Shown here in pieces: positions 3,136-17,358 of a stretch of DNA of 64,000 nucleotides. Each line of letters starts with the position of its first letter. The first letter of the stretch is position 1. The notes beneath the pieces were generated by a model. It was given only the letters and a program-made list of their open reading frames with translations, did not search any database and was not told where the DNA came from. Origin of the DNA: Amycolatopsis echigonensis (GTDB lineage: Bacteria; Actinomycetota; Actinomycetes; Mycobacteriales; Pseudonocardiaceae); the NCBI RefSeq assembly GCF_014174495.1, contig NZ_JACJHR010000011.1:1-64000 (forward strand), in the 5' to 3' direction. The position numbers and the translations under genes were made by a program.

Positions 3136-4971
3136 TTATGCCAGGCGCCGGGTCAGCGCGTCGAACTCCTCGCGCAGGGCCGTGGGCAGCTTGTCGCCGA
3201 CGGTGGCGAACCAGTCGCGGATCAGGTCGAGTTCGGCTGACCACTCGGCCGGGTCGATAGTGAGGGCCTCGTCGACATCGGCGGGGTTGATGTCCAGGCC
3301 GGTCAGGTCGAGGTCGCCAGCCGTCGGCACGGCCCCCAGCGGCGTGTCGGTCGCGTCGGCGGTTCCCTCGATGCGACCGAGGATCCAGGCGAGGACTCGT
3401 GAGTTCTCCCGGAACCCTGGCCACAGGAATCGGCCGTCCTCGCCGCGGCGGAACCAGTTGACTCCGAAGATCCGCGAGAGTTTCGCAGGATCAGCACGCT
3501 CGCCGAGGCTCAGCCAGTGGGCGAAGTAGTCGCCGACGTGGTAGCCGGTGAAGGGCAGCATGGCCATCGGGTCCCGGCGCACCACCCCGACCTCGCCGGT
3601 GGCGGCAGCGGTGGTTTCCGAGGAGAGGGTGGCGCCCAGGAACACGCCGTGCTGCCAGTGCCGGGACTCGGTCACCAGCGGGATGGTGGAGGCGCGGCGA
3701 CCGCCGAACAGGATCGCCGAGATCGGCACCCCGGCGGGATCGTCCCATTCCGGGGCGATGCTCGGGCACTGCTGGATGGGGGTGCAGAACCGGGAGTTGG
3801 GGTGGGCAGCGGGCTCGGTGGAGTCGGGGTGCCAGTCGCGGCCCTGCCAGTCGGTGAGGTGCTCCGGCGCGGTGTCGGTCATGCCTTCCCACCAGACGTC
3901 GCCGGTGTCGGTGAGCGCGACGTTGGTGAAGATCGTGTTGCCCTGCTCGACCATCCGCATCGCGACCGGGTTGGTGCGGTAGCCGGTGCCGGGGGCGACG
4001 CCGAAGAACCCGAATTCGGGGTTCACGGCGTAGAGGCGGCCGTCGTCGCCGAAGCGCATCCAGGCGATGTCGTCGCCGAGGGTCTCGGCTTTCCAGCCGG
4101 GCAGGGTCGGTTGCAGCATGGCGAGGTTCGTTTTGCCGCAGGCGCTGGGGAACGCGGCGGCGACGTAGTGGACCGCGCCTGCAGGTGAGGTGAGTTTGAG
4201 GATGAGCATGTGCTCGGCGAGCCAGCCTTCGTCGCGGGCCATGACCGACGCGATCCGCAGAGCGTAGCTTTTCTTGCCCAGCAAGGAGTTCCCGCCGTAG
4301 CCGGAGCCGTAGCTCCAGATGGTGCGGTCCTCGGGGAAGTGCGTGATGTATTTGACGTCGCTGCACGGCCACGCCACATCGGCCTGGCCGGGCTTGAGCG
4401 GGGCGCCGACCGAGTGCAGGGCCTTCACGAAGTCGGCGTCCTCACCGAACTTCTCCAGCGCCATGGCGCCCATGCGGGTCATCAGCCGCATGGAGACGGC
4501 GACGTAGGCGGAATCGGTGATCTCCACGCCGAGTTTCGGGTTCTCCTCGGCGAGGGGGCCCATGCAGAACGGGAGCACATACATCGTGCGTCCGCTCATG
4601 CTGCCCCGGTAGAGCTCGGTCATGATGATGTTCATGTCGACCGGGTCCATCCAATTGTTGGTGGGCCCGGCGTCGTCGGCGTTCTCGGAGCAGATGTACG
4701 TGCGGTCCTCGGCCCGCGCGACGTCGCGCGGGTCCGATGTGGCGAGGAAGGAGTGGGGTTTCTGCGGGACGCGGACCAGCGTGCCGGCCTCGACCAGCGA
4801 GATCGTCAGGCGGCGCCATTCGTCGTCGGAGCCGTCGCACCACACCACCTTCTCGGGCGTGGTGAGTTCGGCGACTTCGTGCACCCACGCCAGCAGAGCG
4901 TGATGGGTGGTGGGTGCGTGATCCAGTCCAGGGATGGCACCGGCTGGGCGGTTGTCCGTCGAGGTGGTCAT
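3136..4971 (-). CDS. pckG: Phosphoenolpyruvate carboxykinase (GTP)
   Basis: 611 residues, typical for GTP-dependent PEPCK, which interconverts oxaloacetate + GTP and phosphoenolpyruvate + CO2 in the cytosol. The start at 4971 gives [20 protein letters not shown] and has AGGAAG upstream; the open frame extends further but without family sequence. The P-loop FPSACGKTN (about residues 274-282) contains the hyper-reactive cysteine, here Cys278. Metal and substrate regions are visible in [20 protein letters not shown] (201-220) and [14 protein letters not shown] (221-234). All catalytic landmarks look intact. The malic-enzyme-like gene lies 35 bases upstream and the PRPP synthetase follows, suggesting a PEP-oxaloacetate-pyruvate node unit next to the complex-I-like operon. 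Confidence 0.97.
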
Positions 4972-5006: not shown

Positions 5007-5828
5007 TCAGCGGGAGGGTTGGGTGTGAAAGACGCTGGTTACCGCGTCGGTGACGAGGCGGGTCACGGCGATGCCTTTGACGAAGGGCACGGACCTGCCC
5101 GACGGTGGGATGTCGGTGAGGGCGATGGCGCACGCGCGGAGAATCTCGACGTCGAAGGCCAGGCCGGGTGCGTACACGGCGGCTCCCAGGAGCCCGGCCG
5201 CCGCGTACGGTGCCGCGCCGGTGTCCTCGCGGGTGATCACGGTGAGCCCGCCGAGCCGCCTGGTCGCGCTGGAGGGCAGCTCCCCGATGAGGTCGATCAC
5301 GAGGTCGGCGCCGAAGACGATGTTGTGCAAGGGAAAGATCGTGGCGTCGGAGGAGTTCCAGGTGGTGATGTCGTCGACCCCGGTGGCCATGAGCAGCGAG
5401 GTGAGGACAGGCAGGTCCCGCGCTCCGGCAAGGACCACCCTGCTGCCGTGGGCTCGCCGCCCCGCCTTGGCCAGCGAGTCCACTGCCGCGGCGGCCAGGG
5501 CGATCGCGGTGACGTCCTCGTCGGTCAATAGCGGACGCGCGTGGCTGTCCTGCAGCTCCCGCTGCACCTCGCGGGCCCGCGCAGGGGCCACCCGGGTCAG
5601 CAGGACCGCGCCGATATCGGCGGGCAACGCCCGGATGCCTGCCGCGAGGCCGGCCGCGTCGGAGGCGAGGATGACGGTCGGCCGGACGGGAACGCGGGCC
5701 AGGCCACTGATCAGCTCAGCGCCGTCACGTAGCGTCGCTGTCAGGTCGGTGCCGCTGGGCAGGGCGCTGCCATCGGACACGATCGCCACCCGCTGGGCCT
5801 TGGAGTCCGCAGAAGAAGCCGACGTCAT
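5007..5828 (-). CDS. Malic-enzyme-like NAD(P)-binding protein, short form
   Basis: 273 residues, much shorter than a malic enzyme (about 400 or more). The middle holds a dinucleotide-binding pattern ([22 protein letters not shown], first 20 residues diagnostic) followed by [20 protein letters not shown], the layout of the malic enzyme NAD domain. The C-terminus ([22 protein letters not shown], then [11 protein letters not shown]) resembles the end of bacterial malic enzymes. The N-terminal catalytic domain with the metal-binding acids and tyrosine is missing, so decarboxylation of malate is unlikely. The Rossmann glycines are also altered (AGARDL). The gene starts five bases after the 68-residue gene and precedes PEPCK, so it is probably co-translated and may bind or sense a nucleotide. 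Homology is inferred from layout, not from a search. Confidence 0.65.
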
Positions 5829-5833
5829 GGTTG

Positions 5834-6040
5834 CTATCCCCTGGCCTCTGTTGTGGTCAGTTCCGCGGGGTCGATCCAGTCGGTGGTGTCGATGCCATGG
5901 CGTTCGGCCAGGTCGAGCAGATCCTTGATGCGGGCGATGTGCAGGTAGATCTCGTAGTCGTGCCCGGCTTCCCGAGCGGTGGCCAGCTTTTGCTGCGCGC
6001 CCTGGACGCGACCTCGCAGCACTGTCACGAACTCACTCAT
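5834..6040 (-). CDS. Small 68-residue protein, first gene of the malic-like/PEPCK unit
   Basis: ATG at 6040 has AGAAAAGG upstream and gives MSEFVTVLRGRVQGAQQKLA; the longer open frame upstream runs through the AT-rich promoter region and is not credible. The protein is largely helical and charged, with AREAGHDYEIYLHIARIKDL and a C-terminal GIDTTDWIDPAEL. No family is recognised. It is separated from the malic-like gene by five bases, so the two are probably translationally coupled. Its helical character fits a small adaptor or regulatory subunit, but that is a guess. Confidence 0.7.
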   Translation of the reverse strand: MSEFVTVLRGRVQGAQQKLATAREAGHDYEIYLHIARIKDLLDLAERHGIDTTDWIDPAELTTTEARG

Positions 6041-6203: not shown

Positions 6204-7733
6204 CTACAGGTCGTTACCTGCGTAGGAGAGGTTGAAGCTCTTATTGGTCAGCGGGAAGTCCGGGACGATCGTGTCGGCCAGCGCGACCGGCAGGGCGGGC
6301 CAGTTGAAGAAGCTGGGGTCCACGATTTTCACCCGCGACAGCGTCCCGTCAGTGGTGATCTCCACGCGGTGCACGATGGTGCCGCGCCAGCCCTCGGTGA
6401 TGCCCACCCCTGAGCGTGCGGCACCGCTGAGCCGGCCGAGACCCGAGGTGAAGGACGCGAGCCCGTCGTCGATCTCGCCCGCCAGGTAGGTGATCGCCCT
6501 GATCGATTGGGCGATCTCCTCGGCGCGCACCAGGAACCGCGACAGCACGTCACCCTCGGTGCGGACGTGCTCGACGCGGGGAAACGCCCCGTCCAGGAAC
6601 GGATGGTCATGGCGGGCGTCGACGGTCAGGCCGCTGGCGCGGGCCACATACCCCAGGGTGCCCAGGTCCGTGGCCTGCGTGGTGGTGAGGATCGCGGTGC
6701 CGGTGAACCGGTCGGCGACAACGCTGTTGCCCAGGGCGAGGTCGACGATCTCGGCGACGTCGGCGCCGATCGCGGCCAGCTGATCGGGGTCGGGCAGGGT
6801 GTGGACGCGCGTGCCGCCGGGCCGGATCGCGCCGCGCAGCAGCCGGTGCCCGGTGACGTCGTCGTTGATCCGCAGCAGTTGTTCGCGGACGCGCTGGGCG
6901 TGGGTGTTGAGGATGGCGTGGCCGACGTCGTTGCACAGCGCGCCGAGATCGGTGACGTGGTTGTAGAGCCGTTCCAGCTCCAGCAGGATCGCCCGCAGCC
7001 GGTTGGCGTCCTCGGAGACCGGGATGCCGCATGCGTCTTCGACGGCGTGGCAGAACGCGAGGGTGTGCCCGACGGCGGCGTCACCGCTGACGCGTTCGGC
7101 GAGGTCGAGCGCCTGCTCGGGGCGGCGTCCCTGAAACAGCTTCTCCAGTCCTTTGTGGACGAACCAGAGGCGGGCTTTGAGGTTGAGGATGGTCTCGCCG
7201 ACGACGGAGAAGCGGAAGTGGCCGGGTTCGATCATCCCGGCGTGCACCGGGCCGACCGGGATCTCGTAGACGCCGTCTCCTTCGACGGTGCGGAACGGGT
7301 ACGGGCCGTCGACGTCGCCGAACTCGGGGGGTTCGCCAGCGTCGCTCAGCATCGGGTACCAGCCAGCCGGCCAGTGGAAGTGGCGGACCAGACGACGGGG
7401 CAGCGGGTGGTCGGTGGGCACGATGCCGAACAGGTCGCGCATCTCGCGTTCGAACCGCCCAGCCGCGAAGGACAACCCGGCCAGGCTGGGCACCCGCGGG
7501 TCGGCGGGATCGAGCCGGACGTGTAGTTCGACGCGCCGCTCCGGGCCGGTCGCGGTGAACAGGTACACCGCTCGCAGCGTGTCGCCGTCGTCGTGTCCGG
7601 CGACCAGCGCGAGGCGGTGTCCGTGCTCGAGTAACGCCTGCGCCCGCTCCGGTAGCTCGGCGGCGGCGATGGTGCGGGCAGTGCGGCGATATCCGGCCGC
7701 GCTGCTGAACGACGACGACGGCGCGCTGGTCAT
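6204..7733 (-). CDS. hycE: Large subunit (NuoC-NuoD/HyfG-like) of hydrogenase-related complex, no Ni-Fe ligands
   Basis: 509 residues from ATG at 7733, overlapping the HyfF-like stop by four bases (ATGA). An N-terminal NuoC-like domain (GRFEREMRDLFGIVPTDHPL near 105) is fused to a NuoD/large-subunit domain, as in HyfG/HycE. In a hydrogenase the first Ni-Fe CxxC lies in the stretch that here reads RVSGDAAVGHTLAFCHAVED (about 212), with no CxxC pair. The C-terminal CxxC motif is also absent: the protein ends SFNLSYAGNDL. It therefore cannot carry a Ni-Fe centre. Size and order match M. tuberculosis Rv0087 (hycE). It should sit on the cytoplasmic side, bound to the NuoB-like subunit, but its substrate is unknown. 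Confidence 0.92.
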   Translation of the reverse strand: MTSAPSSSFSSAAGYRRTARTIAAAELPERAQALLEHGHRLALVAGHDDGDTLRAVYLFTATGPERRVELHVRLDPADPRVPSLAGLSFAAGRFEREMRDLFGIVPTDHPLPRRLVRHFHWPAGWYPMLSDAGEPPEFGDVDGPYPFRTVEGDGVYEIPVGPVHAGMIEPGHFRFSVVGETILNLKARLWFVHKGLEKLFQGRRPEQALDLAERVSGDAAVGHTLAFCHAVEDACGIPVSEDANRLRAILLELERLYNHVTDLGALCNDVGHAILNTHAQRVREQLLRINDDVTGHRLLRGAIRPGGTRVHTLPDPDQLAAIGADVAEIVDLALGNSVVADRFTGTAILTTTQATDLGTLGYVARASGLTVDARHDHPFLDGAFPRVEHVRTEGDVLSRFLVRAEEIAQSIRAITYLAGEIDDGLASFTSGLGRLSGAARSGVGITEGWRGTIVHRVEITTDGTLSRVKIVDPSFFNWPALPVALADTIVPDFPLTNKSFNLSYAGNDL

Positions 7734-9211
7734 GGTGCCCCCGTGACGGCGGTAGCGGCGGTGTGCAACAACGAGGTCAGCGGTCCAGCGGCGATACCGA
7801 GGGCCGCACATGCCACCAGCCCGGCCGTCAAGACGACGGCGACCGTGATCGGCAGCGGCCGGGTAGCGGTGGCCGCGCCCGGCCCGTCCGGCGGTGCGCC
7901 CAGCAGCATCCGGCTGGTGTGCCCGATCAGGGCAGCGGCGATCACCAGCACCACGAGCAGCGCGGCAGCGGTCACCCAGCCGAGCCCCGCCGCGAAACCG
8001 GACCGGGCGATGCCCAGTTCACTGGCGAAGATGCTGAACGGCGGCAGCCCGATCAACGCGAGGACCCCGAATCCCAGACACCCGGCCAGCACGGGTTGCC
8101 GCGCGGCCAGCCCGCGGACACCGTCGATACGACTGGTGCCGGTGGTCTGCAGCAGCCGCCCGGCACCGAGGAACAGCACCGCCTTGGCCAGGCCGTGACC
8201 GAGGACGTGCAGCAGGGCAGCGGCCAGTGCCAGTGGGCTGCCGACGGCGGCGCCGAGGGCGACCAGGCCGAGGTGTTCGATGCTGGAGTAGGCCAGCATC
8301 CGCTTGTAGTCCCGCTGCGCCAACAGGAGCGACGCCGCCACCGCGAGGGACGCCAAGGCCATGACGATCAGCACGGCGCGGGTGAACCCGGTGCCCAGCG
8401 CGGCGTCGGCGATGACCTTGACCCGCAGGATCGCGTAAAACGCCACCGACAGCAGCACCCCGGACATCAGCGCCGACACGGGCGCCGGGGCTTGGCTGTG
8501 CGCGTCGGGCAGCCACGCGTGCAGCGGTGTGAGTCCGGCCTTGGTGCCGAACCCGAGGATGAGCAGCACCACGGCGATCCGCGTCACGCCCGGGTCGAGG
8601 CTGTGCGCTGTGTGGGCGAGCGCGGCGAGGTCCAGGCCCGGCGTGCCGGGGGCGTGCTGGGCGGCGAAGTTGAGCAGGAACGTGCCCAGCAGGGCGAGCG
8701 CGATGCCGGTGGAGCAGATCACCACGTACTTCCACGCCGCTTCGATCGCGGTCCGGGTGCGTCGTTGCCCGACGAGGAACGCGGTGACGATGGTGGTGGC
8801 TTCGATCGCGACCCACAGCACGCCGAGGTTCGCGGCCAGCACCGCCAGGGCCATCGCGGCGAGGAACACCTGCACCAGGACGCTGTGCCGGGCGGCGGTG
8901 CGTGCGGTTGCCCGGTCCGCGTCGATTTCGCCGCGCAGGTACGCCGGGGTCGCGGCGGTCGCCAGCAGCGCGACCGAGCCGATCACGATCAGCATGAATG
9001 CCGACAACGCGTCGACCCGGATCAGCCCGGCCAGCGCCGTGCGCGGCCCGGACCCCGACACGGCGGCGGCCGTGATAATCGCGGCAGCCAGCACGAGGGC
9101 GGAGGAGCCGGCGCTGATCCATCGGGTGGCTGGTCGCCACCCGCCCAGCAGGTACACCGCGGCACCGAGGAGTGGCACGACGATCGGGGCGAGGACCAAG
9201 GCGGTGTTCAT
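7730..9211 (-). CDS. hycQ: HyfF/NuoN-like proton-antiporter-type membrane subunit
   Basis: 493 residues with about 14 hydrophobic segments, belonging to the antiporter-like subunits shared by complex I and Mrp. Conserved ion-path features are visible: the glutamate in VAIEATTIVTAFL, lysine in FGTKAGLTPLHAWLPDAHSQ, histidines in that loop and in LLHVLGHGLAKAVLF. ATG at 9211 has a strong GGAGG four bases upstream and gives a length close to M. tuberculosis Rv0086 (hycQ). A second in-frame ATG at 9244 overlaps the previous stop (ATGA) and would add 11 residues. The role is coupling redox chemistry to proton or cation movement across the membrane. Confidence 0.9.
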   Translation of the reverse strand: MNTALVLAPIVVPLLGAAVYLLGGWRPATRWISAGSSALVLAAAIITAAAVSGSGPRTALAGLIRVDALSAFMLIVIGSVALLATAATPAYLRGEIDADRATARTAARHSVLVQVFLAAMALAVLAANLGVLWVAIEATTIVTAFLVGQRRTRTAIEAAWKYVVICSTGIALALLGTFLLNFAAQHAPGTPGLDLAALAHTAHSLDPGVTRIAVVLLILGFGTKAGLTPLHAWLPDAHSQAPAPVSALMSGVLLSVAFYAILRVKVIADAALGTGFTRAVLIVMALASLAVAASLLLAQRDYKRMLAYSSIEHLGLVALGAAVGSPLALAAALLHVLGHGLAKAVLFLGAGRLLQTTGTSRIDGVRGLAARQPVLAGCLGFGVLALIGLPPFSIFASELGIARSGFAAGLGWVTAAALLVVLVIAAALIGHTSRMLLGAPPDGPGAATATRPLPITVAVVLTAGLVACAALGIAAGPLTSLLHTAATAVTGAP

Positions 9212-9240
9212 ACCGCCTCCGGGAGAAAGTACGGCGGCGG

Positions 9241-9906
9241 TCATGAGTCGCGTAGCTCCCGCAGTTCGTCGAGGTCGGCGGTGCCGAAGGTCTCCCACAT
9301 CCGAGACGCCAGGATCTGCAGCACCAGCACCGCCAGCAGCACGTCGAGGGACACCCCGAGCTCCACGACCAGGCCGGCACCGGAGGTGGTGAGGAACCCG
9401 ACCGCGGTGATCCCGTTGTCCATCAACAAGAACCCGACCAGTTGGGACAGGGCGCGGCGGCGGGTGACGAGCACGAAGAACCCGATCAGCACCACCGTCA
9501 TTCCGACCGGGATCGCCTGCGTCGCCGCCGAGGGCGCCAACGCAATCAGCGGCTGCGACACCGCATAGGCCAGCATCGTCAGCACCGCCACCGACAGCAG
9601 GGACGCGGCCACGTTGACCAGCGGCCGGGTTTCCCGCCGCGCCGCACCGGCCTTCACCAGCGCCCGGCGCAGCAGATACGGCAGGACACCGACCCGCAAC
9701 ACCGCGATCCCGGCCGCGACGAACCCCAGTTCGACCGAGCGTTCGTGCACGGCCAGCACCGCCACCAGGGCCGTCAAGGCCAGTCCCTGAACGGCGAACA
9801 CCCGGATGATGACCGCGAGTTCGCGGCGCCACACGATGAGCACCGCGGTCAGCAGCAGCGCACCACACGCCAGATCCAGCGCTTGCACATACGCGGTGTC
9901 ACTCAC
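9241..9906 (-). CDS. hycP: HyfE/NuoK-like membrane subunit
   Basis: 221 residues, GTG start at 9906 (GTG AGT GAC). Six or so hydrophobic helices are visible, including RRELAVIIRVFAVQGLALTA and GFVAAGIAVLRVGVLPYLLR, then a conserved QLVGFLLMDNGITAVGFL near 155 that corresponds to the NuoK-like part of HyfE, and a charged C-terminus (DLDELRELRDS). Length matches Rv0085 (hycP). An IS110 element has inserted exactly at this start codon: the TCACGA core (TCGTGA on the coding strand) includes the GTG. The current upstream sequence, including GAGGA 9 bases ahead, therefore comes from the insertion element. The coding region is intact, but transcription from the arsR promoter must now cross the element. 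Confidence 0.9.
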   Translation of the reverse strand: MSDTAYVQALDLACGALLLTAVLIVWRRELAVIIRVFAVQGLALTALVAVLAVHERSVELGFVAAGIAVLRVGVLPYLLRRALVKAGAARRETRPLVNVAASLLSVAVLTMLAYAVSQPLIALAPSAATQAIPVGMTVVLIGFFVLVTRRRALSQLVGFLLMDNGITAVGFLTTSGAGLVVELGVSLDVLLAVLVLQILASRMWETFGTADLDELRELRDS

Positions 9907-9908
9907 GA

Positions 9909-10160
9909 AGCCAGTCCTCAGCGGACATTCGACGAAGTCCTTTCATGTCAGTGCTCCATGACCCGTGGCCGGGTCGCTCGGTAGGGGTGAGAATGTGTGG
10001 GTCGTCCGGCGACGTCGTGTGGCCTTGATGCCGGGTGCTCGAATGTCAGTGGGACGCGGGAGCCTGCGGTACCCGGTAGTGCTGCCATGAGCGCGTGATT
10101 CAGACTCGTTGTCGACAGGCTCCTCCGGACGGCGCGACTGCGTCGGAAGGAGCCGAGGCG
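9909..10160 (+). ncRNA. Candidate bridge-RNA region in IS110 left end
   Basis: About 250 bases of non-coding DNA between the inferred left end and the transposase start. In IS110-group elements such as IS621 this position encodes the structured bridge RNA, whose two internal loops pair with target and donor DNA. Local hairpins are visible, for example GTCGTCCGGCGAC near 10002 and a possible pairing of the GGAGCCTGC and GACAGGCTCC segments near 10060 and 10120. I have not folded it, and loop matches to the TCACGA core were not established. Confidence 0.45.
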
Positions 10161-11405
10161 ATGGACGTGGTGATCCAGCGATGCGCGGGGATCGACATCG
10201 GCAAAAAGACGATGGCGGTCACGATCCGGACGCCCGGGCAGGGCAAGCGCCGCAGGACCGAGACGCGCACGTTCGCGACGATGACCGATCAGGTGCTCGC
10301 GCTGCGCGACTGGCTGCTCGGCGAAGGTGTCGAGGTCGCGGGGATGGAAGCGACCGGGGACTACTGGAAACCGGTGTTCTACCTGCTCGAAGACGCGCTG
10401 GAGTGCTGCCTGCTCAATGCCGGGCACCTCAAGGCCGTCCCGGGACGCAAGACCGACGTCAAAGACTCGGAGTGGATCGCCCAGCTGGTCGAGCACGGGC
10501 TGGTCCGCCCGTCGTTCGTCCCGCCGCCCCCGATCCGGGAACTGCGCGACCTGACCCGCTACCGCAAGACCGTCATCGAGGAACGCACCCGCGAAGTGCA
10601 GCGGCTGGAGAAGATCCTCGAAGACGCCGGCATCAAACTCAGCTCGGTCGCCTCCAGCACCGTCAGCGTCTCCGGCCGGGCCATGCTCGCCGCCTTGATC
10701 GACGGGGAGCGGGACCCCGCGGCGCTGGCGAACCTGGCCAAGGGACGCATGCGCCGCAAAACCCCGATCCTGCAGCAGGCGTTGCGCGGACGCTTCGACG
10801 CCCACCACGCCGTCCTCGTGCGGGAAATGCTCGCCCGCATCGACGCCGCCGACGCCACCGTCGCCCGGCTTTGCCACGAGATCGCCGAACGGCTGCGACC
10901 CTTTCAAGAGCAACTCGACCTGCTGATGTCCATCCCCGGCATCGCCCGCCGCAACGCCGAGGTGCTCATCGCCGAAACCGGCGGCGACATGACCGCGTTC
11001 GGTTCCCCCCACCGGCTCGCGGCCTGGGCCGGCCTCGCACCCGGCAACAACGAGTCCGCCGGCAAACACCGGCCCGGACACACCCGCAAGGGCAACAAAT
11101 GGCTCGGCTCCGCACTCGTGGAATCCGCGCACGCCGCCGCCCGCACCAAAAACACCTACCTCGCCGCGCAGTACTGGCGCCTCTCCGGCCGCCGCGGCAA
11201 GAACCGCGCCGCCGTCGCCGTCGCCCACTCCATCCTCGTCATCGCCTACCACCTCCTCGACCGCCACCAGCCCTACCGCGACCTCGGCGGCGACTACTTC
11301 ACCAGCCGACTGCCCGACCACGCCCACGTCCGCCGACTCGTCGCGCAACTCGAACGACTCGGCCAGCACGTCACCCTCACCCCCAACAACCCGGAGGCGG
11401 CTTGA
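10161..11405 (+). CDS. IS110-family transposase (DEDD recombinase)
   Basis: 414 residues from ATG at 10161, preceded by GGAAGGAGCCGAGGCG. The N-terminal RuvC-like DEDD domain shows GIDIGKKTMAV (first Asp near residue 13), MEATGDYWKPV (Glu) and GRKTDVKDSEWIAQLVEHGL (the two Asp). A coiled middle segment follows, then the C-terminal Transposase_20 domain with LLMSIPGIARRNAEVLIAET, AAWAGLAPGNNESAGKHR and the catalytic-serine region near the end. All parts are present, so the enzyme is probably active. It reads against the complex operon it interrupts. The annotated frame is open further upstream, but that would run into the non-coding left end. Confidence 0.93.
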   Translation: MDVVIQRCAGIDIGKKTMAVTIRTPGQGKRRRTETRTFATMTDQVLALRDWLLGEGVEVAGMEATGDYWKPVFYLLEDALECCLLNAGHLKAVPGRKTDVKDSEWIAQLVEHGLVRPSFVPPPPIRELRDLTRYRKTVIEERTREVQRLEKILEDAGIKLSSVASSTVSVSGRAMLAALIDGERDPAALANLAKGRMRRKTPILQQALRGRFDAHHAVLVREMLARIDAADATVARLCHEIAERLRPFQEQLDLLMSIPGIARRNAEVLIAETGGDMTAFGSPHRLAAWAGLAPGNNESAGKHRPGHTRKGNKWLGSALVESAHAAARTKNTYLAAQYWRLSGRRGKNRAAVAVAHSILVIAYHLLDRHQPYRDLGGDYFTSRLPDHAHVRRLVAQLERLGQHVTLTPNNPEAA

Positions 11406-11429
11406 CAGACCAACTCGCCTATTCACGAT

Positions 11430-12377
11430 TCAGGCCAGGAAGAACGACGCGGCGACCGCGAGCAGGGCGAGCAGGAACGACCCCGCGAGGAGTTCGGGAA
11501 CCCGGAACAGGCGCAGCTTCGCCAGGAACACCTCACCGGCGGCCAGTACCGTGCCCAGGACCGCGACCTTCACCACCCACACCAGCACCCCGGCGAGGAT
11601 CGCGAGCGGGGCGGCGGTGGTGGCGATGCCCCAGGGCAGGAACAGGTTCGCCAGCAACCCGAGAAACACCGTCAGCCGCATCGCCGAGGCGAGCTCGACC
11701 AGCGCGAGGTCCGGACCCGCGTATTCGAGGATCATGGCCTCGTGCACCATGGTCAGTTCCAGGTGCGTGGAGGGGTTGTCCACCGGCAGCCGCCCGGTCT
11801 CGGCGACGATCACCACGATCAGCGCGACCGCGGCGAGCAGGCTGGCCGGGGAGATCACCCGCGCCGGGTCGTGCAGGGTCGAGGTGACGATCGAGGCCAG
11901 GTTGGTCGACCCGACCCGCACCGACAGCGCGAAGATCGCCACCAGCAACGTGGGCTCGACCAGCGCGATGATCGTCATCTCGCGGCTGGCGCCCATCCCG
12001 CCGAACGCGGTCCCGGTGTCCAGCCCGGCCAGTGCCAGCGCGACCGTGCCCAGCGCGAGCAGCGCGACCACCGCGAACAGGTCCGCCACCGCGGCCACGG
12101 CGGAGTCGGTGGTCGCGAACGGCGCCACCACCGCGACCACCAGTGTCGTGGCGACCAGCACCAGCGGCGCGAACCGGAAAATCTCACTCGTGCCGCGCGG
12201 GGCGATTCGCTCCTTGCCGAAGAGCTTGCGCAGGTCCCGCCACGGCTGTCCGATCCCTGCGCCGGCGCGGCCTTCCAGCTTGGCCCGGACCTGTCGCATT
12301 ACCCCGGCCAGCACCGGGGACGCGGCCACCACGACGACTGGCTGCAGCACCCCGCCGACGATCCCGAGCGCGCTCAC
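11430..12377 (-). CDS. hycD: HycD/NuoH-like membrane subunit
   Basis: 315 residues, GTG start at 12377 overlapping the stop of the HyfB-like gene (GTGA). This is the NuoH-type subunit that links the peripheral arm to the membrane arm in complex I and group 4 hydrogenases. Visible family sequence includes GAGIGQPWRDLRKLFGKERI near residue 40, then VAETGRLPVDNPSTHLELTM near 195, which contains the charged loop contacting the NuoB/NuoD pair. About eight hydrophobic helices follow the family layout. Length matches Rv0084 (316 aa from memory). The stop is one base from the IS110 core, so the C-terminus is complete. Confidence 0.93.
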   Translation of the reverse strand: MSALGIVGGVLQPVVVVAASPVLAGVMRQVRAKLEGRAGAGIGQPWRDLRKLFGKERIAPRGTSEIFRFAPLVLVATTLVVAVVAPFATTDSAVAAVADLFAVVALLALGTVALALAGLDTGTAFGGMGASREMTIIALVEPTLLVAIFALSVRVGSTNLASIVTSTLHDPARVISPASLLAAVALIVVIVAETGRLPVDNPSTHLELTMVHEAMILEYAGPDLALVELASAMRLTVFLGLLANLFLPWGIATTAAPLAILAGVLVWVVKVAVLGTVLAAGEVFLAKLRLFRVPELLAGSFLLALLAVAASFFLA

Positions 12378-14392
12378 CGGGTCACCGCCAGCAGGACCAG
12401 GACGGCGCACACGGTGTAGAAGCCGTAGCCGAGGTACCGGTGCACGCTCCCGGTCGCCAGCCTGCGTCCCACCCGGCCCCACGCGGACACCGCGGTCAGC
12501 ACAGGCTGGTAGAGGCGGCGTTCGATCCGGTCGGGTACGCGGCGCCGGTACTCCACGGCTTGCACGAGGTAGGCGGATTCGCGGTGGTGCGTGACGTCGA
12601 CGTCGGTTTCGGGCTGCACGACGTCGTCGAACACCCGCTGCAGTGGCTCGGCGAACGAGGTCGCGGTGTATTCCATCCGCGCCGACATCGGCCCGGCGCC
12701 GCAGTCCCACAACCGGGCGGCCCGCCGTGCCCGCCGGGTTGCGACCAGCCGCACCGCCCCGGCCGCCACGAGCACGGCGGCCAGCAGCGCGAGCGTGAGC
12801 ATCAGCGGTGAGAGGGCACCGGTGATCCCGGCCAGCCGCATCGTGACCGCTCCGGTCACCGCCGGCCCCGCCGAGGGCAGCGCCGTGCTGGCAGCCGTGG
12901 CGATACTGGGCAGCACGAGGGCGGGCGCGACCGCCAGGACCGCGCTGACCGCGGCGGCCACTCCCATCCCGGCCAGCATCGTCGGTGGGCTCTCGTGCGC
13001 GTTCTCCGCGGCGGTACTGCGGGGCCGGGCCAGGAACCCGACGCCGAACGCCTTCACGAACGTCGCCACCGCCAGCCCGGCGGTCAAGGCGACCGCCGCG
13101 ACCGCCAGCGGCATCGCGATCGCCGTCGCGACGCCCGATGTGGGCAGGCCGTGGATCAGGGCTTGCAGCAGCAGCCACTCCGACACGAACGCCGTCCCTG
13201 GCGGCAACGCCGACGCCGCCAGCGCGCCCCACCCGAACGCCGCCGTCGTCACCGGCATCGTGGCGCGCAGGCCACCGAGCGCGTCGAGGTCGCGGCTGCC
13301 GGTCGCGTGCAGCACCGACCCGGCCGCGAGGAACAGCAGGGTCTTGAACGCCGCGTGCCCGATCACGTGCAGCAACGCCGCGCTCAACGCCAGCGCCGCC
13401 AGCACGTGGTCACCGGACGCGGCGAACAAGCCGGACGCGCCGACACCGACCAGGACCAGTCCCATGTTCTCCGTCGTGGAGTACCCGAGCAGCCGCTTCA
13501 GATCGGTCCCCATCGCGGCCTGCAGAATCCCGTACACCGCCGAGACCGCGCCGAGCGTGAGCACCAGCAGCCACCACCACCGCGGGCCGCCGCCGAGCAG
13601 GTCGGACCCGATCCGCACGATCCCGTACACCCCGAGGTTCACCATCGCCGCCGACATCAACGCCGACACATGACTCGGCGCCTCCGGATGAGCGCGGGGA
13701 AGCCACGCGTGCAGCGGCACGATCCCGGCCTTCGACGCGAAACCCGCGAACATCAGCACGAAAACCAGCCCCGCGGTCGCGGGCGGCAGGTGCGAGGCGG
13801 CCTCGCGCAGCGCCGGGAACGAGTCGCCGGTGGCGTGCCCGGCCAGCACCAGAAGCCCGATCAGGATGGTCACAAACCCGAGGTGGGTCATCACCGCGTA
13901 CCAGCGGCCCGCCCGCGCCACCTCCGGGCGGCGACGGTGCTCGGCGAGCACCAGCAGCAGCGAGGTGGCCGCCATCAGTTCCCAGCACACCAGCAGCGTG
14001 CCCGCGCTGGAGGCGACCGGCACCAGCAGCATCGCCGCCACGAACACCGGGAACACGGCCTGGAACAGCCGGGAATCGAGGCCGTGCCGGGTGTAGGAGA
14101 TGCCGTACATCCCGGCGGCGACCGCGACGCCACCGGTGACCGCCATGAACAGGCCGCCCAGCCCGTCCATCGTGAACGAGACACCGGACAGGGGCAGCAC
14201 CCCCGGCAGGGCAAGGGAAAACGCCTGACCGGCCATCGCGGCGGCACCCGCCGTCACACCGGCGGCCCCGGCCAACGCCGTACCGACACCCACCACCGCC
14301 GAGCGCACCCGCTGCGGCACGACCAACGCCGCAACGGTGCCGAGCACCCCTACCACCATGGCCGCACCGAAGCCGACAGCAGCGACGTTCAT
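12374..14392 (-). CDS. hyfB: HyfB/NuoL-like proton-antiporter-type membrane subunit
   Basis: 672 residues from ATG at 14392, overlapping the NuoB-like stop by four bases (ATGA). Antiporter-family core is evident: CWELMAATSLLLVLAEHRRR, FASKAGIVPLHAWLPRAHPE, VSALMSAAMVNLGVYGIVRI, GTDLKRLLGYSTTENMGLVL and LLHVIGHAAFKTLLFLAAGS. These carry the conserved Glu, Lys and His residues of the ion channel. A long C-terminal extension (RLWDCGAGPMSARMEYTATS, near residue 560) is typical of HyfB proteins. It corresponds to Rv0083. Two antiporter-like subunits (this and the HyfF-like one) imply at least two ion-translocating channels in the complex. Confidence 0.93.
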   Translation of the reverse strand: MNVAAVGFGAAMVVGVLGTVAALVVPQRVRSAVVGVGTALAGAAGVTAGAAAMAGQAFSLALPGVLPLSGVSFTMDGLGGLFMAVTGGVAVAAGMYGISYTRHGLDSRLFQAVFPVFVAAMLLVPVASSAGTLLVCWELMAATSLLLVLAEHRRRPEVARAGRWYAVMTHLGFVTILIGLLVLAGHATGDSFPALREAASHLPPATAGLVFVLMFAGFASKAGIVPLHAWLPRAHPEAPSHVSALMSAAMVNLGVYGIVRIGSDLLGGGPRWWWLLVLTLGAVSAVYGILQAAMGTDLKRLLGYSTTENMGLVLVGVGASGLFAASGDHVLAALALSAALLHVIGHAAFKTLLFLAAGSVLHATGSRDLDALGGLRATMPVTTAAFGWGALAASALPPGTAFVSEWLLLQALIHGLPTSGVATAIAMPLAVAAVALTAGLAVATFVKAFGVGFLARPRSTAAENAHESPPTMLAGMGVAAAVSAVLAVAPALVLPSIATAASTALPSAGPAVTGAVTMRLAGITGALSPLMLTLALLAAVLVAAGAVRLVATRRARRAARLWDCGAGPMSARMEYTATSFAEPLQRVFDDVVQPETDVDVTHHRESAYLVQAVEYRRRVPDRIERRLYQPVLTAVSAWGRVGRRLATGSVHRYLGYGFYTVCAVLVLLAVTR

Positions 14393-14874
14393 CGACCGGT
14401 CAGCTTCCGCAATCCCTCGACAATCGCCTCCGGCCGCGGCGGGCATCCCGCGATCTCCAGATCCACCGGCACCACGTCCGACACCGCACCGGCCAGCCCG
14501 TAAGCCCCAGCGAACGCGCCGCAGTTCCGGGCGCAATCCCCGACCGCGACCGCGAGCCGGGGCGCGGGGGTCGCCTCGTAGGTGCGCCGCAACGGTGCCG
14601 CCATGTTCCGCGTCACCGGCCCCGTCACCAGCAACGCATCCGCGTGGCGCGGCGAGGCGACCAGGCGCGCGCCATAGCGTTCGGCGTCGTAGACCGGCCC
14701 GAACGCCGACCCGATCTCCACCTCGCACCCGTTGCACGAGCCGGCGTCCACGTGCCGCACCTGCACCGAACCGCCCAGTGCAGCGGCGGCCGCGGGCATG
14801 TCACCGCTCGGTCGAGGTGGCGCGGGCTCGGCCACCCGGCCGGTCCGGCGGATCTTGCGCCACAAGCTCAGCAC
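14389..14874 (-). CDS. NuoB-like iron-sulfur subunit of hydrogenase-related complex
   Basis: 161 residues. GTG at 14874 is chosen because CAGGAG lies six bases upstream and the resulting length matches Rv0082; an ATG 26 codons later would cut off the conserved amphipathic start (VLSLWRKIRRTGR). The four cysteines for the N2-type [4Fe-4S] cluster are all present: SCNGCE near residue 45, GDCARNC near 113 and AGCPPRPE near 143. The electron-transfer part of the complex is therefore intact even though the partner large subunit has no Ni-Fe site. It would sit between that subunit and the NuoH-like subunit. Confidence 0.92.
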   Translation of the reverse strand: MLSLWRKIRRTGRVAEPAPPRPSGDMPAAAAALGGSVQVRHVDAGSCNGCEVEIGSAFGPVYDAERYGARLVASPRHADALLVTGPVTRNMAAPLRRTYEATPAPRLAVAVGDCARNCGAFAGAYGLAGAVSDVVPVDLEIAGCPPRPEAIVEGLRKLTGR

Positions 14875-14980
14875 ACGCTGCTCCTGACTGTCGTTCTCAA
14901 GAAGGGTGCGGTCCAGTCCGCCTGGGCGACTGAGCAGAGGACCAGGCGCAGTGGACCGCGGCTCATGCGCTCCGCGAGTC

Positions 14981-15337
14981 CTACGTCGGCGGAGGCGGCC
15001 CTGCCGACCCGGCCGGAGCGCGCAGGTCGTCGAGCAGCTCGATCTGCCCGGTGAGCACACCGGTCAGGATCTGCCGCGCGACCCGCAGCAGCTCCGCGAC
15101 GTGCGGGCTGGTCAGCGAGTAGTAGACAGTGGAGCCTTCCTTGCGGGTCACGACCAGCCCGGCGCGGCGCAGCACGGCCAGCTGCTGGGACAGGTTCGCC
15201 GCTTCGATCCCCACCTCGGGCAGCATTTCCGCCACGGCATGTTCGCGTTCGCTCAGCAGCTCCAGCACCCGGATCCGCGCGGGGTGGCCCAGGGTCTTGA
15301 AGAACTCGGCCTTCGCTTGGTAGAGGGGTCTGCTCAC
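14981..15337 (-). CDS. ArsR-family repressor heading the complex operon (Rv0081-like)
   Basis: 118 residues, ATG at 15337 with AGGAGGAGCGTCCG upstream. A compact winged-helix protein: KAEFFKTLGHPARIRVLELL is the ArsR/SmtB start, IEAANLSQQLAVLRRAGLVV the recognition helix, and GSTVYYSLTSPHVAELLRVA the wing and dimer helix. There is no ELCVCDL-type metal-binding motif, so it is unlikely to be a classical metal sensor. Sequence and position match M. tuberculosis Rv0081, a hypoxia-linked regulator that controls its own operon, as I recall. The gap to the NuoB-like gene is about 100 bases. Its likely operator is the palindrome at 15383. Confidence 0.93.
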   Translation of the reverse strand: MSRPLYQAKAEFFKTLGHPARIRVLELLSEREHAVAEMLPEVGIEAANLSQQLAVLRRAGLVVTRKEGSTVYYSLTSPHVAELLRVARQILTGVLTGQIELLDDLRAPAGSAGPPPPT

Positions 15338-15646
15338 GGACGCTCCTCCTCACGCACGCGCCACCACGGCATCATGTTCAACACTTGCTAACCTTAGCAA
15401 GTCTGAAATCCTATTGTGCACTGAGTGGACCGCATCGAGAGGCACGAGATGCGCCAACCGACCGTCGCCGACGTCGTGACCAGGGCCGTCGTGTTGCGGG
15501 GCATGACGTTGGTGTCGGTGCCTCCCGTCGTTGTCGGGGCTGCTTTCCACCCGGTCCAGTCGTCTCACCGGACCCGGCTGCCCCCAGCTCCTACCGCTCC
15601 GCTGCGACGGACCGGCGGCGCGGGCCTCACACCCGCACACGGATCA
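15338..15646. other. Regulatory and anonymous DNA between regulator and intron remnant
   Basis: About 310 bases. The left part holds the regulator's promoter and palindrome. The rest has no supportable gene; a short plus-strand frame from about 15450 (MRQPTVADVVTRAVV) looks like the first residues of a CBS-domain protein but is not followed by one. Confidence 0.4.
15383..15402. promoter_or_regulatory. Perfect 20-bp palindrome, probable ArsR-type operator
   Basis: ACTTGCTAA, CC, TTAGCAAGT: two exact nine-base arms around two bases, 46 bases upstream of the regulator start. It is the only long perfect palindrome in this intergenic region and sits in an AT-richer patch, as expected for an autoregulatory operator overlapping the promoter. 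Confidence 0.7.
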
Positions 15647-16130
15647 GTGAGGTCGGCTCGGAGCGCCGTGCCCGCGTTGCCGCGGGTGGGTTTCTCCGAG
15701 CCGCCTCCCGAACCCGGCGTGCCAGTTGTCCCGGCACCGGGCTCTCCACAAGTCCCGGCGGGATCGTGTTGGTCTCATGCGACGCTCGGCCATGGCGACG
15801 GGATGCGCGCGCCCCGGTAGTAGTAGCGCTTCGCGCGTACCCTGGCGGGGTCGAACAGCCCAATATCGCCATCGGCGGGCCAGATGCCGTAGCGTCGACG
15901 CAGTTGCTTCCATGGGGTGCGTCGATGCTTGCGTTTCTGCCACCGGACGATCTCCTTCCACAAGTATGACCGTAGGTAGCTGAAGGTCGCGTTCGAGCAT
16001 CCGTACTTGAAGTACGCGGTCCAGCCCCGCAGCATCCGGTTGAGCTGGAGCAGCAGGACTGCGAGCGTTTGGTTCGTGTTCTTCCGGCAGGTCGTCTTGA
16101 TCTTGGCCATGACGGCAGCGAGCGCCTTCT
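15647..16130 (-). mobile_element. 3' remnant of a group II intron (maturase X domain, domains V and VI)
   Basis: On the minus strand a maturase C-terminus is followed by RNA-domain sequence. Domain V matches at 15710-15744 (minus): it begins GAGCCCGGTGCC and ends GCACGCCGGGTTC, with an 8-bp basal stem. Domain VI follows at about 15655-15705 with GGCTCGGAG pairing to CTCCGAGCC around an inner CCCGCG-GCAA-CGCGGG hairpin. The likely 3' end is near 15647 (GACCTCAC). The 5' intron and the reverse transcriptase domain are gone, so it cannot splice or move alone. Confidence 0.75.
15775..16130 (-). pseudogene. Group II intron maturase fragment (X/GIIM domain only)
   Basis: Reads AKKALAAVMAKIKTTCRKNT, then QLNRMLRGWTAYFKYGCSNA, YLWKEIVRWQKRKHRRTPW and RYYYRGARIPSPW before the stop, the characteristic C-terminal maturase domain of intron-encoded proteins. 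All reverse transcriptase motifs, including YADD, are missing because the frame joins recombinase sequence near 16130. An internal ATG at 16110 exists, but the piece is a remnant and not a gene of its own. Confidence 0.75.
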
Positions 16131-16382
16131 TGGCCGGGTAGACGCGACGAACTCGCCGATGTCTTCCAGCCGCACCTCCCGCCAGTCCACGCCGCGACCG
16201 TCGAGGAAGGCGAACCAGTCCTTCAAGTCATGGGCGTAAGCCTTGATCGTGTTCGGGGACCGCTCGATGTCGGTCAGATAGGCCAGATACCGCTCGATCG
16301 GGCCGACCGGGGCGTCGTCATCGCCCAGAACGGTCCACGACTCCAGCGGCGAGGCGGGTGAAACGACCCGCTGAACAAGCAT
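16131..16382 (-). pseudogene. Tyrosine recombinase fragment (N-terminal core-binding domain)
   Basis: Starts at ATG 16382 with a perfect GGAGGAG six bases upstream. The visible part is the SAM-like core-binding domain of XerC/Tn554-TnpA-type recombinases: PIERYLAYLTDIERSPNTIK, then AYAHDLKDWFAFLDGRGVDW and REVRLEDIGEFVAS. After about 83 residues the sequence switches abruptly to group II intron maturase. The catalytic domain with the Arg-His-Arg-Tyr residues is absent from the window. This was probably the integrase of a mobile element, later broken by deletion. Confidence 0.75.
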
Positions 16383-16492
16383 TGCTCCTCCGGAAGATCC
16401 GCGTGATGGACGGCGGCAGATAAGCACGTCCAGCACGCAGTCGCCCGGCTCTCACCTCCTCGTGTCCAACATGGACGACACAGGCCAGCGGG

Positions 16493-16640
16493 CTCAAGAT
16501 AACGATCGCGTTCGTGGTGCACACCACCGTGCGGATTTCCTTGTCAAACTGGAGAAACGGCACGAACTCGGCCCACGCGTTCTCCCACAGCCTGATGATC
16601 GCCGGGTAGCGGGCCTCCCACTTCTCGCCGAAGGCGGCCA
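16493..16640 (-). pseudogene. IS256-family transposase fragment
   Basis: About 48 codons on the minus strand read LAAFGEKWEARYPAIIRLWE, then NAWAEFVPFLQFDKEIRTVV and CTTNAI, a hallmark of the C-terminal part of Mutator/IS256 transposases. In full proteins the text continues ESINARIRR, but here it breaks down immediately. Both ends are lost. It abuts the methyltransferase remnant at about 16641, so the IS insertion or a later deletion probably removed that gene's 5' half. Confidence 0.75.
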
Positions 16641-16641
16641 G

Positions 16642-17358
16642 TGGGGGCTCTCCCAGCTGGCACCCGGCGGGCGGCTGGTGATACCCCTGCGGATTCGCGG
16701 AAGCGTGTCGCGCTCGATCGCGTTTGAGCGGGACCCCGACGGTGGCTGGCGCAGCGCCGAACACGCGATGTGCGGCTTCGTCCCGCTGCGCGGCGGCATC
16801 GCCGACGACCCCCGCAGCCGGATCGACCTGACCGGCGACAACACCGTCACCCTCCAATCCCACCAGGACCAGCCCTTCGCCCCCGAACGGCTGACCGGCG
16901 TGCTCGACCAGCCCCGCAGCGAGATGTGGACCGGGGTCACTTTCGCCCGGATGGAATCGTTGGAGTGGATGTACCTCTGGCTCACCTGCGCGCTACCCGG
17001 CGGCCTGCGCAGCATGCCCGCGGAGCAGACCGCGATCGACTCCGGCCGCATCACCCCGATGTTCCGCACCGGGATGGCCGTACCCGGCGACGGCGAGTTG
17101 GCCTACCTCGCCAAACGTCCCGGCGGCCACGACAGCGACGGCCACGAACTCACCGAAACCGGCGTCATCGGGCACGGCCCCCACGGTGGCGAACTGGCGG
17201 CCCGCGTCGCCGACGAGATCCGAACCTGGCACCGGGACTTCCGGCACCGGGACGTCCGGTTCGAGATCCCCGCCGACGGCACCGACACCTCCGACCCCAC
17301 GCGCGGCCGGTTCTTCCTCGACCGCCCCCATCACCCCATCACCGTCGTCTGGCAGTAA
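16642..17358 (+). pseudogene. 5'-truncated FxLD-system/PCMT-type methyltransferase
   Basis: About 238 codons without a usable start. The reading begins WGLSQLAPGGRLVIPLRIRG, the end of a Rossmann methyltransferase core of the protein-L-isoaspartate methyltransferase superfamily, and continues with AFERDPDGGWRSAEHAMCGF, as in the methyltransferases of FxLD-type RiPP systems. The C-terminal domain appears intact up to TAA at 17358. The SAM-binding N-terminal half is missing, replaced by IS256 sequence. No FxLD precursor peptide is visible nearby. The subfamily is from memory of the C-terminal sequence and less certain than the superfamily. Confidence 0.6.

What the first reader, a model, noticed from the sequence alone, without database searches (positions are those of the whole stretch)
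6204..15337. Complex-I-like operon whose large subunit has lost the Ni-Fe site but keeps the iron-sulfur path
The sequence shows a NuoB-like subunit with all four cluster cysteines, two antiporter-like subunits, and HycD- and HyfE-like subunits. The HyfG-like subunit has neither CxxC pair (RVSGDAAVGH near residue 212; C-terminus SFNLSYAGNDL). Order and sizes match M. tuberculosis Rv0081-Rv0087, including the ArsR gene. By knowledge of the family this is an energy-converting-hydrogenase-related (Ehr-type) complex. What it oxidises or reduces is not known; the neighbouring PEPCK/malic-like genes hint at a carboxylic-acid or redox-balance link.
Basis: partly seen in the sequence, partly recalled or inferred. 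Interest (0 to 1): 0.72.

Follow-up and report, generated by a model that had tools for sequence, protein, structure and literature searches.

The report
Complex-I-like pump without hydrogen site
A soil actinobacterium carries genes for a membrane complex related to respiratory complex I and to hydrogen-making enzymes, but all four metal-holding cysteines of its large subunit are gone and only one iron-sulfur cluster site is left, so it likely pumps protons by a reaction other than making hydrogen, one that is still unknown.

Summary
Window 6204-15337 (minus strand) encodes ArsR-NuoB-HyfB-HycD-HyfE-HyfF-HyfG. HyfG has S216, A219, S503 and G506 at the four Ni-Fe cysteine sites; none of 81 aligned sequences or of the 120 best database hits has a cysteine there. 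The C-terminal extension and, from this genome, HypD and HypF are missing. This is an Ehr-type complex; its regulator matches Rv0081.

Corrections and additions: (1) the "iron-sulfur path" is one cluster (NuoB), with no NuoI-like subunit found; (2) an IS110 element splits the operon between hycD and hyfE, leaving reading frames intact; (3) D218 and D269 are fixed in this clade, so the old metal site looks rebuilt.

Relatives make the wiring puzzling. A Solirubrobacterales-type clade keeps four cysteines, yet 7 of 9 genomes tested lack HypD and HypF. Another clade keeps the window's pocket motifs but has lost three of four NuoB cluster cysteines. A second complex in the same genome has lost all four and carries a fused ferredoxin.

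Best reading: a proton pump, likely fed by a soluble donor through one cluster to an unidentified acceptor. Substrate and pumping are untested.

The parts
14981..15337 (-). arsR-family regulator, Rv0081-like, 118 aa, no cysteine
   Evidence: Pfam HTH_5; best solved match 6jmi Rv0081 E 1.2e-36; sequence
15383..15402 (.). palindrome ACTTGCTAA-NN-TTAGCAAGT, candidate operator of the ArsR regulator, 46 bp upstream of its start codon
   Evidence: pattern taken from the window; 48 of 60 upstream regions (window included) hold a copy with 13 or more of 18 positions, about 0.1 expected in shuffles
14389..14874 (-). NuoB/HycG-like small subunit, 161 aa, with the single [4Fe-4S] cluster site
   Evidence: Pfam Oxidored_q6 E 3e-29; MbhJ 6cfw_J E 1.1e-35
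14725..14736 (-). C47-x-x-C50 of the cluster (hydrogenase-type spacing)
14533..14535 (-). C114, third cluster cysteine
   Evidence: 76/76
14443..14445 (-). C144, fourth cluster cysteine
   Evidence: 76/76
12374..14392 (-). HyfB-like antiporter subunit, 672 aa; E138, K221, K350, E405 kept
11430..12377 (-). HycD/NuoH-like membrane anchor, 315 aa; acidic NuoH-like stretch kept
9944..11425 (+). IS110-family insertion element (ends within a few bases); transposase ORF 10161-11405; begins 4 bases after the hycD stop codon and ends about 37 bases before the hyfE start
   Evidence: absent from locus L012, whose large subunit is 90% identical; NF033542 IS110 RNA-guided transposase E 9.5e-81
9241..9906 (-). 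HyfE-like membrane subunit, 221 aa
   Evidence: NF008556 E 2.2e-27, below its cut-off
7730..9211 (-). HyfF-like antiporter subunit, 493 aa; E137, K161, K224, H313, E398 kept
6204..7733 (-). HyfG/HycE-like large subunit (NuoC + NuoD), 509 aa, no Ni-Fe ligands, no C-terminal extension
7077..7088 (-). S216-G-D218-A219 in place of the first CxxC
6207..6227 (-). S503-Y-A-G506-N-D-L509, C-terminus in place of the second CxxC
5834..6040 (-). small ORF, relatives near the operon in 10 of 82 records
5007..5828 (-). malic-enzyme-like protein (likeness recalled; no Pfam or NCBIfam hit), near the operon in 15 of 82 records
3136..4971 (-). GTP-dependent PEP carboxykinase, near the operon in 12 of 82 records
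   Evidence: NF003253 E 2.4e-293

Best explanation
The window encodes an Ehr-type, complex-I-like membrane complex with no nickel-iron ligands and a single iron-sulfur cluster site; it likely works as a proton pump driven by electrons that a soluble donor is predicted to hand to that cluster and on to an unidentified acceptor in a rebuilt polar pocket. Shown: the subunits, the loss of all four ligands, no NuoI-like wire found, conserved residues at and near the old metal site (S216, G217, D218, D269, S503, G506, N507, D508), the kept antiporter Lys/Glu residues, and a conserved palindrome in front of arsR. Inferred: assembly into one complex, that these residues form one pocket, direct docking of a ferredoxin-like donor on NuoB, reduction of a small molecule, and coupling through HycD to the two antiporter subunits. 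In this genome an IS110 element likely weakens co-transcription of the last three genes with the first three.
For: Four cluster cysteines are kept in 75-76 of 76 rows, with the two-residue spacing of MBH and [NiFe] hydrogenases, where the proximal cluster donates electrons to the active site (PMC7684303, passages). Channel residues are kept in HyfF and HyfB. D218 and D269 occur in all 84 window-clade rows and in all 5 rows of the two nearest Cys-less clades tested, but are A (126 of 129) and G (129 of 129) in the four-Cys clade, and are absent from 9 other Cys-less rows; this suggests a pocket rebuilt as the metal was lost. D269 aligns with D325 of E. coli NuoCD; HycE has F. Clade SESG (L103-L105) has the SGD motif with two ferredoxin motifs in one frame with an intact NuoB, an electron entry route in near kin. 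All seven operon genes are under purifying selection (dN/dS 0.03-0.18 against L012).
Against: No donor was found in or next to the operon. Of the three complex I quinone residues (roles recalled) only the Asp is kept: NuoCD H224 is I168 (81/81) and Y273 is G217 (81/81), so quinone is not a favoured acceptor. A near clade (L102, L106, L134, L136, L137) keeps the pocket motifs but has T-C-D-D at the cluster sites, so they can be kept without this cluster. The AlphaFold model leaves the pocket unresolved (pLDDT under 50 at 139-194 and 476-509). DosR-type boxes are not enriched upstream.
Confidence: 0.5

Rival explanations
1. The complex is not electron-driven: a ligand or reaction in the SGD/GND pocket moves the coupling loops and gates proton or cation flow, and the NuoB cluster is structural or a redox sensor.
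For: No NuoI-like gene found around the operon (81 loci, 5 of them cut). The pocket motifs are kept in a near clade that lost three of four NuoB cysteines, read in 5 genomes at 69-72% identity in the large subunit. The EASG family, with the second complex of this genome, lacks the cluster cysteines in 120 of 120 listed hits. Two of three quinone residues are replaced.
Against: In the window clade the four cluster cysteines are kept in 75-76 of 76 rows, hard to explain without a redox role; one of the five cluster-less loci (L134) has a two-cluster ferredoxin-like gene 1.6 kb away.
Confidence: 0.27
2. It is a donor:menaquinone oxidoreductase that borrows NuoI or the whole electron-input module from the cell's complex I, so that the missing wire is supplied in trans.
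For: A full-length NuoD is encoded elsewhere in the genome (C252, E 1.3e-110). The quinone-site Asp is kept.
Against: The quinone His and Tyr are Ile and Gly; NuoB has hydrogenase-type CxxC rather than the tandem cysteines of complex I; no shared interface was tested.
Confidence: 0.08
3. It is a [NiFe] formate hydrogenlyase or hydrogenase, as records and papers name such loci.
For: Names given by sources ('Ni,Fe-hydrogenase III large subunit', 'formate hydrogenase HycE'). In 200 genomes of the family HypD is commoner with the operon (22 of 31) than without it (59 of 169), Fisher p 2.6e-4.
Against: No Cys at the four sites in 120 of 120 hits; no HycF, HyfH, NuoI or HycI hit in 81 records and HycB only at two distant NarH-like genes; HypD absent from the own genome, HypF only in sub-threshold pieces, 9 of 31 operon-bearing genomes without HypD; no formate dehydrogenase over the cut-off (best 541 of 666 bits).
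Confidence: 0.02
4. The copy in this genome is decaying: an IS110 element splits the operon, a group II intron remnant lies just upstream, and T219 is Ala here only among 81 rows.
Against: All reading frames are open; dN/dS is 0.03-0.18 for the seven operon genes, no higher downstream of the insertion than upstream, though a recent insertion would not show yet; the palindrome is intact.
Confidence: 0.13

Closest known systems
Ehr complexes (energy-converting hydrogenase-related)
   Same: Large subunit of the group 4 hydrogenase/NuoD kind without Ni-Fe ligands; antiporter-like membrane arm; function unknown (passages of PMC6349859; PMC10284858; PMC10432482; PMC5037454)
   Different: Here no NuoI-like subunit found and one cluster site only; clade-specific acids D218 and D269. 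The subunit make-up of Ehr complexes in other phyla was not compared here
M. tuberculosis Rv0081-Rv0088 locus, published as a predicted formate hydrogenlyase (He et al. 2011, seen only as a reference)
   Same: ArsR regulator (6jmi, E 1.2e-36); mycobacterial members L043 and L052 lie inside the clade
   Different: M. tuberculosis structural genes not compared here; the IS110 insertion is absent from the locus compared, L012
E. coli formate hydrogenlyase / hydrogenase 4 (Hyc, Hyf)
   Different: No four cysteines, no HycB/HycF, no HycI, no C-terminal extension; HypD and HypF not found in the genome
Respiratory complex I
   Same: NuoB/C/D/H and antiporter-like subunits; quinone-site Asp
   Different: No NuoI or NADH module in the operon, CxxC instead of tandem cysteines in NuoB, Ile and Gly for the quinone His and Tyr
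MBS, sulfane sulfur reductase of Pyrococcus furiosus
   Same: Complex of the same lineage that has lost the Ni-Fe site and uses the NuoB-type cluster (PMC7684303, passages)
   Different: MBS keeps three clusters, two of four Ni-Fe cysteines and a three-cysteine cluster; the window has four cluster cysteines with MBH-like spacing

Membership tests
Ehr complex | group 4/NuoD-type large subunit without the CxxC pairs that hold Ni-Fe | tested here: met
   0 of 120 hits and 0 of 81 aligned rows have Cys at any of the four sites
Ehr complex | antiporter-like membrane subunits with proton-path residues | tested here: met
   (roles of the residues recalled)
Ehr complex | redox reaction coupled to ion transport | not testable with these tools
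   needs the purified complex
[NiFe] hydrogenase group 4a / formate hydrogenlyase | four cysteine ligands | tested here: not met
   S216/A219/S503/G506
[NiFe] hydrogenase group 4a / formate hydrogenlyase | HycB/HycF ferredoxin subunits, HycI protease and C-terminal extension | tested here: not met
   no hit at the operon; extension absent; HycB, HycF/HyfH and HycI present in 6 of 6 group-4a loci of the same phylum
[NiFe] hydrogenase group 4a / formate hydrogenlyase | Hyp maturation system | tested here: not met
   HypD 0 matches in own genome while the control rings in 4 of 14 genomes; HypF below cut-off; HypA, B, C, E not searched
[NiFe] hydrogenase group 4a / formate hydrogenlyase | formate dehydrogenase partner | tested here: inconclusive
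   14 sub-threshold matches in the genome, none over cut-off, none on the window's contig C13
Respiratory complex I | NuoI plus NADH module at the locus | tested here: not met
   NuoI; no such gene among the operon's ORFs
Respiratory complex I | quinone-site His, Tyr and Asp | tested here: not met
   NuoCD H224, Y273, D325 align with I168, G217, D269; roles recalled
MBS (sulfane sulfur reductase) | shortened NuoB loop with three-cysteine cluster | tested here: not met
   C47-x-x-C50 as in MBH, C114, C144
Rv0081-Rv0088-type locus | Rv0081-like regulator in front of the same gene order | tested here: inconclusive
   regulator matches 6jmi; M. tuberculosis structural genes not fetched
IS110 insertion element (10161-11405) | DEDD and Transposase_20 domains | tested here: met

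The most novel reading that the evidence does not exclude
Actinomycetota hold a family of complex-I-like machines in which the hydrogenase site has been turned into a new, metal-free pocket (SGD...SYxGND) and the electron wire is dispensable. One clade keeps the pocket with one cluster (the window), another keeps it with no Ni-Fe, intact NuoB-cluster or ferredoxin site recognised in the operon, and a four-cysteine sister clade mostly works without the Ni-Fe maturation system. The coupling machine of complex I would then be driven by chemistry other than electron transfer to a quinone or proton.
Probability: 0.2. Interest if true: 0.88.

Novelty: new variant of a known kind. Interest (0 to 1): 0.62.

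Why it matters
Loci of this kind, the M. tuberculosis one included, are still written of as hydrogenases or formate hydrogenlyases. The window clade has no ligands for that, and this genome lacks HypD, HypF and, at the operon, the electron wire. The series of relatives (Ni-Fe with Hyp; four cysteines mostly without Hyp; SGD pocket with three, one or no cluster sites) turns 'what do Ehr complexes do' into direct tests and bears on how complex I arose from hydrogenases. That 7 of 9 four-cysteine relatives tested lack HypD and HypF also warns that CxxC pairs alone do not prove a hydrogenase.

Tried and rejected
DosR-type box (consensus recalled) upstream of the operon: 21 of 76 regions have a site of 8 or more of 10 positions, about 31 expected; rejected. 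Formate hydrogenlyase reading: rejected. MBS-like catalytic cluster: not supported by cysteine spacing. Quinone site: I first took H193 for the quinone His; a check showed that NuoCD H224 aligns with I168 and that H193 is a His shared with HycE. That reading is withdrawn: menaquinone is no longer named as first candidate, the borrowed-module rival went from 0.10 to 0.08 and the non-redox rival from 0.25 to 0.27. Modelling of the pocket: the AlphaFold model of HyfG has mean pLDDT 74 but the pocket-bearing segments are under 50; the model of the small subunit of the second kind of complex (P0121, 97% identical to this genome's) is poor (64); neither was used for pocket claims. Ferredoxin motif scan in six frames, operon plus 2 kb: 11 of 81 loci gave a CxxCxxCxxxC string; I judged all to be chance strings of GC-rich DNA from their short frames (20-137 codons) and composition, without a further test; a ferredoxin with another spacing, like that of the second complex, would escape this pattern. 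ORF-based scan: 3 of 82 records with such ORFs, 3-6 kb away; two look like NarH and one like a ferredoxin (recalled, not searched). tblastn with HycF, HyfH, NuoI, HycB and HycI against 81 records (80 loci and L003): HycB hits in 2, at the NarH-like genes, no other hit; it also missed the fused ferredoxin of L003, so its reach is limited. PEPCK link: 12 of 82, kept as a lead only. HypD as a clean marker: weakened, because HypD and the operon co-occur more than expected, perhaps through genome size (not tested). Paper searches (listings, and passages of seven papers); none of the listed papers was seen to describe a cluster-less or NuoI-less Ehr or a Hyp-less four-cysteine clade, but the library lacks most subscription papers and the founding Ehr papers were not read.


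Full report
What is there. The minus strand of window 6204-15337 holds seven operon genes in the order arsR, nuoB, hyfB, hycD, hyfE, hyfF, hyfG. The best database match of the large subunit is the window's own protein, then an Amycolatopsis protein at 90%; the window lies in a 9.66 Mb genome in 302 contigs, rated 100% complete. The six structural genes stand in this order in 75 of the 80 public loci kept (of 191 found), with an arsR hit upstream of nuoB in 61; the other 5 loci are cut by contig ends. The operon is patchy: 31 of 200 genomes of the family match (one of them only in part) and, of 11 sampled in the genus, only this one.

Electron path. NuoB keeps four cluster cysteines (C47, C50, C114, C144) in 75-76 of 76 rows. 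No NuoI/HycF-like gene was found in or beside the operon: an ORF scan found ferredoxin-type motifs in 3 of 82 records, all 3-6 kb away; a six-frame scan of 81 loci gave 11 loci with strings that I judged to be chance ones, without a further test; tblastn with HycF, HyfH and NuoI gave no hit in 81 records. These scans would miss a ferredoxin as divergent as that of the second complex. So one cluster site is what remains at this locus.

Membrane arm. Residues that carry protons in NuoL/M/N (positions recalled) are kept: E137, K161, K224, H313, E398 in HyfF (78 to 80 of 81 rows) and E138, K221, K350, E405 in HyfB (75 to 76 of 77 rows).

Maturation. HypD is absent from the own genome and HypF is found only in sub-threshold pieces. 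Against a simple reading, HypD is commoner in operon-bearing genomes of the family (22 of 31) than in others (59 of 169), Fisher p 2.6e-4, though 9 of 31 do without it.

Relatives. A survey of 396 genomes of the phylum and 33 fetched regions gave a series. (a) Six group-4a loci: four Ni-Fe cysteines, cluster cysteines, HycB, HycF/HyfH and HycI; HypD 6/6 and HypF 6/6. (b) Nine loci of another clade: four cysteines in 8, three in 1 (CDCC); four cluster cysteines; no CxxCxxCxxxC motif with the following P/G/A, no HycI hit, an arsR hit in 8; HypD 2/9 and HypF 2/9. Of 120 listed database hits of this clade, 106 read CCCC, 11 CDCC, 3 CGCC, and 120 end at CxxCxDR; the few with organism names are Solirubrobacterales or Thermoleophilia. 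(c) SESG, three loci: SGD motif, intact cluster and two ferredoxin motifs in one frame with NuoB. (d) SSSG, small subunit read in 5 genomes: SGD[ST], with NKSFNLSYSGNDL in the four of them whose C-terminus is seen, but T-C-D-D at the cluster sites; one of the five has a two-cluster ferredoxin-like gene 1.6 kb away. (e) STSG, the window clade. (f) EASG, with the second complex of this genome. Three more Cys-less kinds (ATSE, SSSE, SD-type) were seen and not pursued. The tree joins (d) and (e) (100/96), with (c) outside them (94/83) and (b) outside all Cys-less clades (93/91); its root is only a midpoint.

The old metal site. Positions fixed in 84 window-clade rows and in the 5 rows of (c) and (d) used, but different in 129 rows of (b), include S216, D218, D269, N501, S503, G506, N507 and L509. 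D218 is A in 126 of 129 and D269 is G in 129 of 129 rows of (b); nine other Cys-less rows have neither Asp. This suggests that two acids came in as the ligands were lost. Of the complex I quinone residues (recalled: His, Tyr, Asp), NuoCD H224 aligns with I168, Y273 with G217 and D325 with D269; HycE has D, G and F there. So the site is neither a hydrogenase site nor a normal quinone site.

The second complex. On contig C124 of the same genome lie HycD, HyfE, a fused HyfF-HyfG frame of 972 aa, a ferredoxin-NuoB fusion and HyfB. Its NuoB part has D135, E138, D202, S232 in place of the four cluster cysteines; in 120 listed hits the first and third are D in 120 each, the second E or D in 111, the fourth S in 115, and the four cysteines of the fused ferredoxin (46, 65, 68, 71) are invariant in 120. 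It is rarer: 6 of 200 genomes of the family. By these sites the two complexes of this genome keep one cluster each, in different places.

Regulation. A palindrome ACTTGCTAAnnTTAGCAAGT lies upstream of arsR in the window (15383-15402); with 13 or more of 18 positions it is in 48 of 60 upstream regions (window included), against about 0.1 in shuffles. The regulator has no cysteine and matches Rv0081. A DosR-type box is not enriched. Clusters of ORFs whose representatives are a GAF-domain kinase, a universal stress protein and a NarL-type regulator lie in the flanks of 18, 8 and 8 of 82 records, which fits a stress or low-oxygen setting but does not prove it.

State of this copy. An IS110 element of about 1.48 kb sits between hycD and hyfE; L012 shows the empty site. 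A group II intron remnant (maturase domain 15775-16110; intron core 15647-15746) lies upstream of arsR. All frames are open, and dN/dS against L012 is 0.03-0.18 on both sides of the insertion; a recent insertion would not yet show in this.

Mechanism. I commit to an electron-driven proton pump with a single cluster, a soluble donor and an unknown acceptor in the rebuilt site (0.5). The chief rival is a non-redox, ligand-driven or gated machine (0.27), which the cluster-less clade (d) makes serious. Formate hydrogenlyase is refuted at sequence level.

Novelty. Ehr complexes are a named class without known function. What I did not find in the paper searches is the NuoI-less single-cluster form, the acids D218/D269, the cluster-less clade and the Hyp-less four-cysteine clade; the library is open-licence only and most papers were seen as listings.

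Noticed in passing
L003 (G000:C124) 9171-16663: Second complex-I-like operon in the same genome: fused HyfF-HyfG, ferredoxin-NuoB fusion with the NuoB cluster cysteines replaced by D/E/D/S (0 of 120 listed hits keep them) while the fused ferredoxin's four cysteines are invariant
   Followed up: partly
L110-L114, L116, L117, L123, L124: Four-cysteine relatives (Solirubrobacterales-type) of which 7 of 9 genomes lack HypD and HypF, so the site likely holds something other than the usual Ni-Fe cofactor
   Followed up: partly
L102, L106, L134, L136, L137: Complexes with the window's pocket motifs but T-C-D-D at the NuoB cluster sites, conserved at 69-72% identity in the large subunit
   Followed up: partly
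window 9944-11425: IS110 (RNA-guided transposase family) element splitting the operon without breaking a gene
   Followed up: yes
window 15647-16436: Group II intron remnant (Rfam RF00029, maturase-specific domain) and an N-terminal integrase fragment just upstream of the operon
   Followed up: partly
window 15383-15402: Perfect palindrome, conserved upstream of arsR in 48 of 60 regions, candidate operator for Rv0081-type regulators
   Followed up: yes
window 5007-5828: Malic-enzyme-like protein without any Pfam or NCBIfam hit, with a higher dN/dS than its neighbours (0.53 against L012)
   Followed up: no
window 21058-21390 and 22108-22425: Two short MerR-type regulators near an HSP20 gene (23316-23753)
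   Followed up: no
L052 10001-12107: The match spans 2107 bases in 'Candidatus Mycobacterium methanotrophicum' against about 1500 in most other loci; cause not looked into
   Followed up: no
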